Source of the DNA: Streptomyces populi
Lineage (GTDB): Bacteria > Actinomycetota > Actinomycetes > Streptomycetales > Streptomycetaceae
Reading direction: 5' to 3'
NCBI RefSeq assembly: GCF_002911015.1
Contig: NZ_KZ626860.1
Location: 1-64,000 of the forward strand
DNA: 64,000 nucleotides
Shown here: in pieces, positions 37,917-54,765 of the stretch
How the letters are laid out: every line of letters begins with the position of its first letter
Position numbering within the stretch: position 1 is the first letter of the stretch
Program-made: the position numbers and the translations under genes
The notes under the pieces: model-generated
What the model was told of the DNA's origin: nothing
The model's database searches: none
Seen by the model: the letters and a program-made list of their open reading frames with translations, nothing else

Positions 37917-37957
37917 TGGTCCGAACCATTGACAGGGTGGTCTAGTCCTCATACCGT
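37917..37957 (+). promoter_or_regulatory. Orphan chitinase-type promoter with DasR-like repeats
   Basis: TTGACA (37929-37934) and TACCGT (37952-37957) are spaced by 17 bp. Two 12-bp direct repeats, TGGTCCGAACCA (37917-37928) and TGGTCTAGTCCT (37938-37949), flank and fill the -35/-10 interval with a 21-bp period. They resemble the DasR element (core TGGTCTAGACCA) and the paired repeats known from Streptomyces chitinase promoters. The promoter points right into the 3' end of the convergent TetR gene, whose stop is 5 bp away; no gene follows it on this strand. Confidence 0.8.
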
Positions 37958-54121: not shown

Positions 54122-54276
54122 TTCCCGGGTCCTCCTGCCTCATGGGGCACGGACTCCGGGGCTGTCGATGACGACACAATGAGCGGACCGCGGCACACCG
54201 GGAGCGACGCCGAAAGGACACCCGTCCCGCAGGACGAGCAGCAACAAACGGCAGCGCGCACGAATGCCCGCCCGCC

Positions 54277-54403
54277 GCGCACTGCCTCCCATCCGGACTT
54301 TAACCGTCGGTCCAGGAATTTCACCTGGTCAACCGGCCGCTGGAAGCGACCGGGTCGCGGACTGTAACCGCCGGTTCGGAATTACACCGACCCCGGAGTG
54401 CGC
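54277..54403 (-). promoter_or_regulatory. FMN riboswitch (RFN element) of the rib operon
   Basis: On the minus strand the conserved RFN blocks occur in order: GTGTAATTCCGAACCGGCGG, ACAGTCCGCGA, GTTGACCAGGTGAAATTCC, CCGACGGTTAAAGTCCGGAT and GGGAGGC. The ends pair as GCGCAC/GTGCGC (P1: 54398-54403 with 54277-54282). FMN binding should shut down the ribE-ribM-ribBA-ribH unit. The ribE ribosome-binding site lies about 145 nt beyond the aptamer in a hairpin-prone leader, so control may be by sequestration or termination. Confidence 0.96.
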
Positions 54404-54566
54404 TGCTTCTGGTACATGGCCAGTGTGCCACGCCCGATCGACGGCCATGCGGTCACATCCCTGTGGGGTGGCTCACAGGCGATCCGCATGGACTTCCACG
54501 GAACGGTTCGCCGGTCAACTTCCCCGCCCCCGCGCGGCCTTGGGCCGCGGCGCACATCTTCGCGAC

Positions 54567-54608
54567 TGGTCCATACCTATTGACGCTATGGTCTAGTCCT
54601 CTTAGTGT
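54567..54608 (+). promoter_or_regulatory. Second orphan chitinase-type promoter with DasR-like repeats
   Basis: TTGACG (54580-54585) and TAGTGT (54603-54608) are spaced by 17 bp. The direct repeats TGGTCCATACCT (54567-54578) and TGGTCTAGTCCT (54589-54600) have a 22-bp period. The design matches the element at 37917-37957 almost base for base. It points right toward sigJ, but a hairpin at 54658-54696 would stop the transcript about 80 nt after its start. Confidence 0.8.
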
Positions 54609-54657
54609 CCTCGATCAAGACTGCGTGATCATTCATTGCCGGTCCCCCCACGATCGA

Positions 54658-54696
54658 CCCGGCGGCGGTGACGAAGGCCCTTGCCCCGCCGCCGGG
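54658..54696 (+). terminator. Hairpin between the orphan promoter and sigJ
   Basis: CCCGGCGGCGG (54658-54668) and CCGCCGCCGGG (54686-54696) form a perfect 11-bp stem with a 17-nt loop. Lying in a gene-free stretch, it looks like the terminator of a gene that is no longer there. Confidence 0.75.
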
Positions 54697-54765
54697 TCTC
54701 CAGCAGGCCCGGCGGACCGGCCCCCACGTGATCCGCGGACGTGCGGCCTCTGCGACGCTGGAGGC

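What the first reader, a model, noticed from the sequence alone, without database searches (positions are those of the whole stretch)
54567..54696. Second orphan chitinase-type promoter, still followed by a terminator, at the position of chiI
The element repeats the design of 37917-37957 (TGGTCC...ACC repeat, TTGAC, TGGTCTAGTCCT in a 17-bp spacer, TANNNT). It lies just upstream of the rib operon, where S. coelicolor has chiI (SCO1444, from memory). A perfect 11-bp hairpin follows 50 bp later with no gene between. Two independent losses of chitinases with retained control sites would point to reduced chitin use, or the promoter-terminator unit now makes an ~80-nt DasR-controlled RNA.
Basis: partly seen in the sequence, partly recalled or inferred. 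Interest (0 to 1): 0.75.

Follow-up and report, generated by a model that had tools for sequence, protein, structure and literature searches.

The report
Chitinase promoter and hairpin outlive gene
In many Streptomyces species the chiI chitinase gene has disappeared, but its switch (a DasR-type promoter) and the RNA hairpin from its tail have been kept together and unchanged, which suggests they now form a tiny RNA gene of their own.

Summary
Window 54567-54608 is the chiI (SCO1444) control region; both its dre boxes match the published S. coelicolor chiI dre sites over the 12-14 core bases. It is followed 48 nt later by a perfect 13-bp hairpin (54656-54698), with no gene between. chiI is absent from this genome.

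The relic reading fails. Among 131 Streptomyces genomes lacking chiI, 83 keep promoter and hairpin together, 3 carry the pair inverted as a block, 4 keep the hairpin with a weakened promoter, 39 have neither, and 2 have a promoter alone. In 82 chiI-less copies the apical GGCCCUUGCC is nearly invariant, the 5' bulge is 91% identical and the promoter 82%; the spacer and downstream DNA are at chance level. The stem covaries, and the hairpin has no Rfam match. chiI was apparently lost at least a dozen times inside the hairpin-bearing lineage, each time leaving the pair.

Best explanation: a DasR-controlled small RNA of about 84 nt here (near 45 nt in some species), derived from the chiI 3' end and retained after the mRNA was lost. 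Transcription and any target are untested; no target was found computationally.

The parts
54567..54578 (+). upstream dre box TGGTCCATACCT (DasR-responsive element 1 of chiI)
   Evidence: same core as S. coelicolor chiI dre at -75 in PMC4398421 Table 1
54580..54585 (+). -35 hexamer TTGACG
   Evidence: conserved in the orphan units of relatives
54589..54600 (+). second dre box TGGTCTAGTCCT inside the -35/-10 spacer
   Evidence: same core as S. coelicolor chiI dre at -53, EMSA-positive in the literature
54603..54608 (+). -10 hexamer TAGTGT; start site predicted about 54614-54616 (inferred)
   Evidence: sequence; TANNNT kept in relatives
54609..54655 (+). spacer where the chiI coding sequence sits in relatives; not conserved
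   Evidence: pairwise identity 0.30 against 0.28 for shuffled spacers over 82 orphan loci
54656..54668 (+). 5' arm of the conserved hairpin, GACCCGGCGGCGG
   Evidence: covariation
54669..54675 (+). conserved 5' bulge TGACGAA (consensus UGACGAC)
   Evidence: 91% pairwise identity in orphans
54676..54685 (+). apical GGC-CCTT-GCC, CCUU tetraloop on a 3-bp stem
   Evidence: nearly invariant in 82 orphan loci; kept in divergent hairpins 3' of chiI in other clades
54686..54698 (+). 3' arm of the hairpin, CCGCCGCCGGGTC; predicted RNA 3' end/terminator without a U tract
54275..54405 (-). FMN riboswitch of the divergent rib operon; anchor used to find the locus in relatives
   Evidence: RF00050, 100.2 bits
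54766..55686 (+). downstream sigma factor (Sigma70_r2, r4_2 plus SnoaL_2; 'sigJ'), not required by the unit
   Evidence: absent in 58 of 83 promoter-hairpin loci

Best explanation
54567-54698 is a self-contained transcription unit of the genus Streptomyces: a DasR-responsive sigma-70-type promoter directly followed by a conserved hairpin. It produces a small structured RNA, about 84 nt in this genome and reduced to nearly the bare 42-45-nt hairpin in species where the spacer has shrunk. The hairpin was originally the 3' end of the chiI chitinase mRNA. It acquired a function of its own, so when the chiI coding sequence was deleted, repeatedly, promoter and hairpin were kept together. Shown here: chiI origin, loss of the coding sequence, co-retention, sequence and structure conservation, inversion of the unit as a block. 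Inferred: transcription, DasR/GlcNAc control in this organism, action as a regulatory RNA. The most likely mode of action is base pairing through the exposed CCUU/GGCCCUUGCC loop and the UGACGA bulge with purine-rich ribosome-binding sites of partner mRNAs, coupling them to chitin/GlcNAc status. That last step is a guess; I found no target.
For: Origin: in chiI+ genomes the same promoter precedes chiI and the same hairpin starts right after the chiI stop codon, 2.3-2.4 kb downstream. L123 is an intermediate with promoter, signal-peptide start and carbohydrate-binding-module fragment, then the hairpin. chiI is absent at E<=1e-100 from 30 promoter-hairpin genomes, while 6 of 6 positive-control genomes give full-length hits. 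Co-retention, promoter scored independently of the hairpin: chiI-less with hairpin, 83 with promoter + 3 inverted as a block + 4 with degraded promoter; chiI-less without hairpin, 39 without promoter, 2 with. A hairpin-only scan of named genomes gives the same picture: 91 promoter-hairpin, 18 chiI-hairpin, 6 other. Unbiased genus sample: 52 promoter-hairpin, 36 neither. Selection: mean pairwise identity over 82 orphans is apical 1.00, bulge 0.91, promoter 0.82, stem 0.82, against spacer 0.30 (shuffled 0.28) and downstream 0.54 (shuffled 0.52). Structure: 98.5% of cells paired, 4 pairs with changes on both sides, covariation score reached by 0 of 500 shuffles, slid controls far lower; folding z = -2.7. 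Repeated loss: at least 17 chiI losses leading to promoter-hairpin tips at branch support >=0.8, 12 at >=0.9, with different residual junctions. Autonomy: unit inverted in L286, L287, L288. Independent of sigJ. Promoter activity appears to be what is kept: L107 and L365 keep -35 and -10 but have lost dre2.
Against: No transcript has been observed, and no RNA-seq data could be searched. No target is visible: reverse-complement matches to the loop region are barely above the reversed control (128 against 106). The unit was always studied beside the rib operon, so a cis role there is not excluded. Orphans were collected with a pattern allowing 1 mismatch in the apical loop, which slightly inflates apical conservation. 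The loss counts rest on a single-locus tree and assume chiI was not regained by recombination through the conserved flanks. Stems are GC-rich, so fold energy alone means little.
Confidence: 0.66

Rival explanations
1. Passive relic: chiI was deleted recently and the promoter and terminator have simply not decayed yet.
For: The sister genome G024 shares the state with near-identical sequence. Partial pseudogenes exist (L123, L297).
Against: The state is shared by about 90 diverse genomes whose spacer and downstream DNA are randomised while the unit is conserved. Without a hairpin the promoter is lost along with chiI in 39 of 41 cases. Compensatory changes occur in the stem.
Confidence: 0.06
2. 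DNA-level DasR decoy: the dre pair is kept to titrate DasR, and the hairpin is kept only as a terminator that protects downstream genes.
For: dre2 is among the best-kept parts. Some loci lose -35 but keep dre2 (L103, L106, L112, L132).
Against: A terminator does not need a fixed bulge and loop. L107 and L365 lost dre2 but kept -35, -10 and hairpin. Losing the hairpin never leaves the dre pair behind inside the hairpin clade.
Confidence: 0.1
3. Cis element: transcription from this promoter, or the hairpin itself, controls the neighbouring rib operon or downstream gene (sigma factor or NmrA-like reductase).
For: The unit was found only next to the FMN riboswitch in all loci examined. The promoter lies about 120 nt from the divergent rib leader.
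Against: 58 of 83 units lack the sigma factor and many lack the reductase. The unit is inverted in three genomes and still kept. 36 of 142 sampled genomes have the rib operon without the unit.
Confidence: 0.12
4. 3' mRNA-protection hairpin: the element binds a protein or stabilises RNA ends and is retained as a transcribed protein sponge rather than a base-pairing regulator.
For: An asymmetric bulge plus a small apical stem-loop on a strong stem looks like a protein-binding site. The loop sequence is fixed and no base-pairing target was found.
Against: No protein partner is known. This is a variant of the best explanation (still a functional small RNA) rather than its opposite.
Confidence: 0.06

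Closest known systems
s-SodF, 3'-UTR-derived sRNA of S. coelicolor sodF mRNA (Kim et al. 2014, as reviewed in PMC9438474)
   Same: A Streptomyces sRNA located in the 3' UTR of a regulated enzyme gene, ending in a strong hairpin; expression follows the control of the parent promoter.
   Different: s-SodF is processed from an intact sodF mRNA and has a known target (sodN). Here the coding sequence is gone in most lineages, the promoter sits directly in front of the hairpin, and no target is known. Rfam has a sodF sRNA family (RF02790), which the hairpin does not match.
chiI (SCO1444) promoter and DasR regulon (dre elements; PMC4398421, Colson et al. 2007 as cited in PMC6097792)
   Same: Same two dre cores, same spacing inside a 17-nt spacer, same place beside the rib operon.
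   Different: There is no chitinase gene behind it.
U-lacking GC-rich hairpin (I-shaped) terminators of Streptomyces (HS-U-lack transcript ends, PMC8269248)
   Same: Strong GC stem without a U tract at the 3' end of a transcript.
   Different: Ordinary terminators conserve pairing, not the sequence of a bulge and loop; sister clades carry ordinary unconserved-loop hairpins behind chiI.

Membership tests
DasR regulon, chiI promoter | two dre boxes matching the S. coelicolor chiI dre elements | tested here: met
   Core sequences TGGTCCATACCTAT and TGGTCTAGTCCTCT are identical
DasR regulon, chiI promoter | position between the rib operon and the place of chiI in relatives | tested here: met
   chiI lies between promoter and hairpin in 26 genomes scored for both, and behind the promoter in 37 more
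DasR regulon, chiI promoter | DasR binds this site in this organism | not testable with these tools
   binding shown only for S. coelicolor in the literature
3'-UTR-derived sRNA | sequence is the 3' UTR of an mRNA in some lineage | tested here: met
   hairpin directly after the chiI stop codon
3'-UTR-derived sRNA | conserved beyond what the mRNA terminator requires | tested here: met
   loop and bulge conservation with chance-level flanks
3'-UTR-derived sRNA | a discrete short transcript accumulates | not testable with these tools
   no RNA data could be searched; no mention found in the papers searched
3'-UTR-derived sRNA | acts on a target RNA | tested here: inconclusive
   no enrichment of complementary sites in the genome, 128 against 106 in control
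any Rfam family | covariance-model score at the gathering threshold | tested here: not met
   only the FMN riboswitch scores in the window; the best hits at the hairpin are far below threshold
ordinary intrinsic terminator | stem conserved but loop sequence free to vary | tested here: not met
   loop nearly invariant in 82 loci
decaying gene remnant | control sites decay like flanking non-coding DNA after gene loss | tested here: not met
   promoter 0.82 against spacer 0.30 and downstream 0.54 identity, both at shuffled level

The most novel reading that the evidence does not exclude
A Streptomyces-wide small RNA family, born as the 3' end of a chitinase mRNA, whose host coding sequence has been lost many times independently while its DasR-controlled promoter and hairpin were preserved: an mRNA converted repeatedly into a non-coding RNA gene that links GlcNAc/chitin sensing to post-transcriptional control.
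Probability: 0.55. Interest if true: 0.85.

Novelty: new variant of a known kind. Interest (0 to 1): 0.72.

Why it matters
DasR links N-acetylglucosamine to antibiotic production and development in Streptomyces, and hardly any post-transcriptional partners of that regulon are known. A conserved, single-copy, DasR-type RNA gene beside the rib operon would be an easy genetic handle. The locus also looks like a natural series of independent experiments in which a protein-coding gene became an RNA gene: coding sequence intact, half deleted (L123), fully deleted, spacer minimised, inverted. That makes the birth of a non-coding RNA gene from an mRNA 3' end directly traceable. It also explains an 'empty' promoter that would otherwise be dismissed as a relic.

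Tried and rejected
Relic or chance: rejected by genome-wide counts with reversed controls and by conservation against flanks.

Sigma-factor leader or read-through: rejected because most units have no such gene downstream.

Small ORF in the hairpin (GTG ACG ACG GCC CTT ...): judged unlikely because of 1-nt indels in L089 and L122 and varied bulges; not tested further.

Hairpin outside Streptomyces: the one Acidobacteriota hit (L245) lacks a stem and is chance; in the order-level sample the listed non-Streptomyces matches have 2-3 mismatches.

Known RNA family: no Rfam match. Literature for an sRNA at SCO1443/SCO1444 or chiI: none found in the open-access papers searched. Supplementary tables could not be read, so an existing unnamed annotation is possible.

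Target search by extended complementarity: no signal.

The first tally was biased by BLAST rank, so I repeated it on an evenly drawn genus sample. The tally credits a promoter to every hairpin; the independent scoring is. The first chiI screen regex was wrong and was replaced by a corrected motif and tblastn.

Full report
WHAT IS THERE. Exact parts: dre1 54567-54578, -35 54580-54585, dre2 54589-54600, -10 54603-54608, then 47 nt of non-coding spacer, then a 13-bp perfect stem 54656-54668/54686-54698 with a 7-nt 5' bulge UGACGAA and apical GGC-CCUU-GCC. In the whole 9.59-Mb genome the promoter motif is found three times and the reversed control zero times: here, at 37929, and upstream of a GH18 chitinase (L001). 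The hairpin sequence is found once even with three mismatches, control zero.

WHICH GENE IT BELONGED TO. The dre cores are identical to those published for S. coelicolor chiI, SCO1444 (PMC4398421 Table 1: actggtctagtcctct and attggtccatacctat). The pair at 37917 has the published chiD (SCO1429) pattern (aatggtccgaaccatt, actggtctagtcctcc), and in relatives that element is followed by a GH18 chitinase (DGIDIDWE). In relatives the promoter beside the rib operon is followed by a 2.3-kb GH18 + ChiC + CBM5/12 chitinase. chiI is not in this genome (E<=1e-15) nor in 29 other promoter-hairpin genomes (E<=1e-100), while six of six chiI-bearing control genomes give full-length hits at 81-100% identity. 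The genome as a whole has three GH18 and one GH19 matches.

THE HAIRPIN IS THE 3' END OF chiI. In chiI+ genomes of this lineage the identical hairpin starts within about 25 nt of the chiI stop codon. In other lineages the hairpin behind chiI varies: some keep GGCGGCGG/CCGCCGCC and the apical GGCCCUUGCC with a different bulge (L163, L166, L316, L346, L357-L360), others have an ordinary terminator (GAGGACCCGGTGGCCCGGCGGCCACCGGGTCCTC).

NOT A RELIC. I oriented 197 genomes on the FMN riboswitch and scored promoter, chiI and hairpin. A first set was rank-biased; 142 genomes come from an evenly drawn genus sample. With the promoter scored independently of the hairpin: chiI present, 63 genomes, all with promoter (26 with the hairpin, 29 without, 8 truncated). 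chiI absent and hairpin present: 83 with promoter, 3 with the whole promoter-hairpin block inverted (L286, L287, L288), 4 with a damaged promoter. chiI absent and hairpin absent: 39 without promoter, 2 with (L301, and L297 in which chiI has an internal deletion). The strict promoter pattern hits 3 of 1970 shuffled controls. A scan of named genomes with the hairpin pattern alone, which cannot favour the promoter, returned 91 promoter-hairpin loci, 18 chiI-hairpin loci, 6 others and 2 truncated. In the evenly drawn sample 52 of 142 genomes are promoter-hairpin and 36 have neither (that tally credits a promoter to every hairpin, so one search is the independent count).

SIGNATURE OF SELECTION. 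Over 400 random pairs among 82 forward orphan loci, mean identity is apical 10-mer 1.00, bulge 0.91, promoter 0.82, stems 0.82; spacer 0.30 (shuffled 0.28), downstream 60 nt 0.54 (shuffled 0.52), ribE coding 0.87. The collection pattern allowed one mismatch in the apical loop, so its value is slightly favoured; the bulge was not selected on, and the promoter and stem only loosely (up to 3 promoter mismatches, a minimum stem score). The stem covaries: 31 distinct sequences, 98.5% of cells paired, four pairs with double changes, covariation score not reached by any of 500 shuffles, and much lower when the partner strand is slid. Spacer length ranges from 3 to 265 nt, and in about 27 loci the -10 ends only a few bases before the stem, so the predicted start coincides with the foot of the hairpin and the RNA would be little more than the hairpin itself.

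REPEATED LOSS OF THE CODING SEQUENCE. On a tree of the neighbouring rib region, chiI-bearing and orphan genomes interleave. Assuming no regain, at least 17 losses lead to promoter-hairpin tips when branches under 0.8 support are collapsed and 12 at 0.9. Residual sequences differ between orphans: leader and ribosome-binding-site remnants in L096, L100, L102 and L115; signal-peptide start plus carbohydrate-binding-module fragment in L123. This supports several separate deletions rather than one. Regain of chiI by recombination through the conserved flanks could reduce the count and was not excluded.

INDEPENDENT OF THE NEIGHBOURS. 58 of 83 promoter-hairpin loci have no sigma factor downstream and many lack the NmrA-like gene. 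The sigma factor appears to have its own start-codon-proximal promoter motif in relatives with and without the unit (inspection only).

MECHANISM, WITH WHAT IS SHOWN AND WHAT IS INFERRED. Shown: origin, conservation, co-retention, structure, autonomy as a block. Inferred: DasR represses the promoter and GlcNAc signals relieve it, as for chiI in S. coelicolor; RNA polymerase starts about 54615 and stops after 54698 at the GC-rich hairpin. U-less hairpin ends are common in Streptomyces (PMC8269248). The resulting RNA acts through its fixed loop and bulge. A CCUU loop could pair with AAGG-type ribosome-binding sites, but matches to the extended complement are not enriched in the genome (128 against 106 in the reversed control), so base pairing is only the leading guess; a protein-binding role is possible. 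Two sister genomes (L107, L365) lost dre2 but kept -35, -10 and hairpin, which argues that making the RNA, rather than binding DasR as DNA, is what is kept.

COMPARISON WITH KNOWN THINGS. There is no Rfam match at or near threshold. The closest precedent is s-SodF, a 3'-UTR-derived sRNA of S. coelicolor (PMC9438474). It differs in that its mRNA is intact and its target known. I found no report of an RNA at this locus in the open-access papers searched; supplementary tables were not readable, so an unnamed transcript may already be listed somewhere.

VERDICT. Observation confirmed; the relic reading is not supported; the RNA reading is well supported by comparative evidence but unproven at the bench.

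Noticed in passing
window 37917-37957: Orphan promoter with the published chiD (SCO1429) dre pair; in relatives this element is followed by a GH18 chitinase. It has no conserved hairpin and runs into the end of an opposing TetR-like gene; the only long match in relatives is the sister genome G024, so it looks like a recent, ordinary loss.
   Followed up: partly
L286, L287, L288 (G172, G130, G101), about 200-350 nt after the riboswitch: The whole promoter-hairpin unit is inverted as a block and still intact, including the dre boxes.
   Followed up: partly
L123:1800-2200 (G196): Intermediate stage of chiI loss: promoter, leader, start codon and signal-peptide start, then a C-terminal carbohydrate-binding-module fragment, then the intact hairpin.
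   Followed up: yes
L297 (G081): chiI with an internal deletion removing most of the catalytic domain, apparently in frame, with an intact promoter; in a lineage without the hairpin.
   Followed up: no
L107 (G257) and L365 (G168): Promoter-hairpin units in which the second dre box is destroyed while -35, -10, dre1 and hairpin are kept; possibly released from DasR.
   Followed up: no
L103, L106, L109, L112, L132: Units that keep TTGGTCTAGTCCT and the hairpin but have lost the TTGAC -35 and first dre box.
   Followed up: no
G016, G082, G093: A second FMN-riboswitch-like copy elsewhere in the genome.
   Followed up: no
G000:C38:39422 (L001): The only other chi-type promoter of the genome, in front of its main GH18 chitinase; its dre boxes are TGGTCCAGACC twice.
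   Followed up: partly
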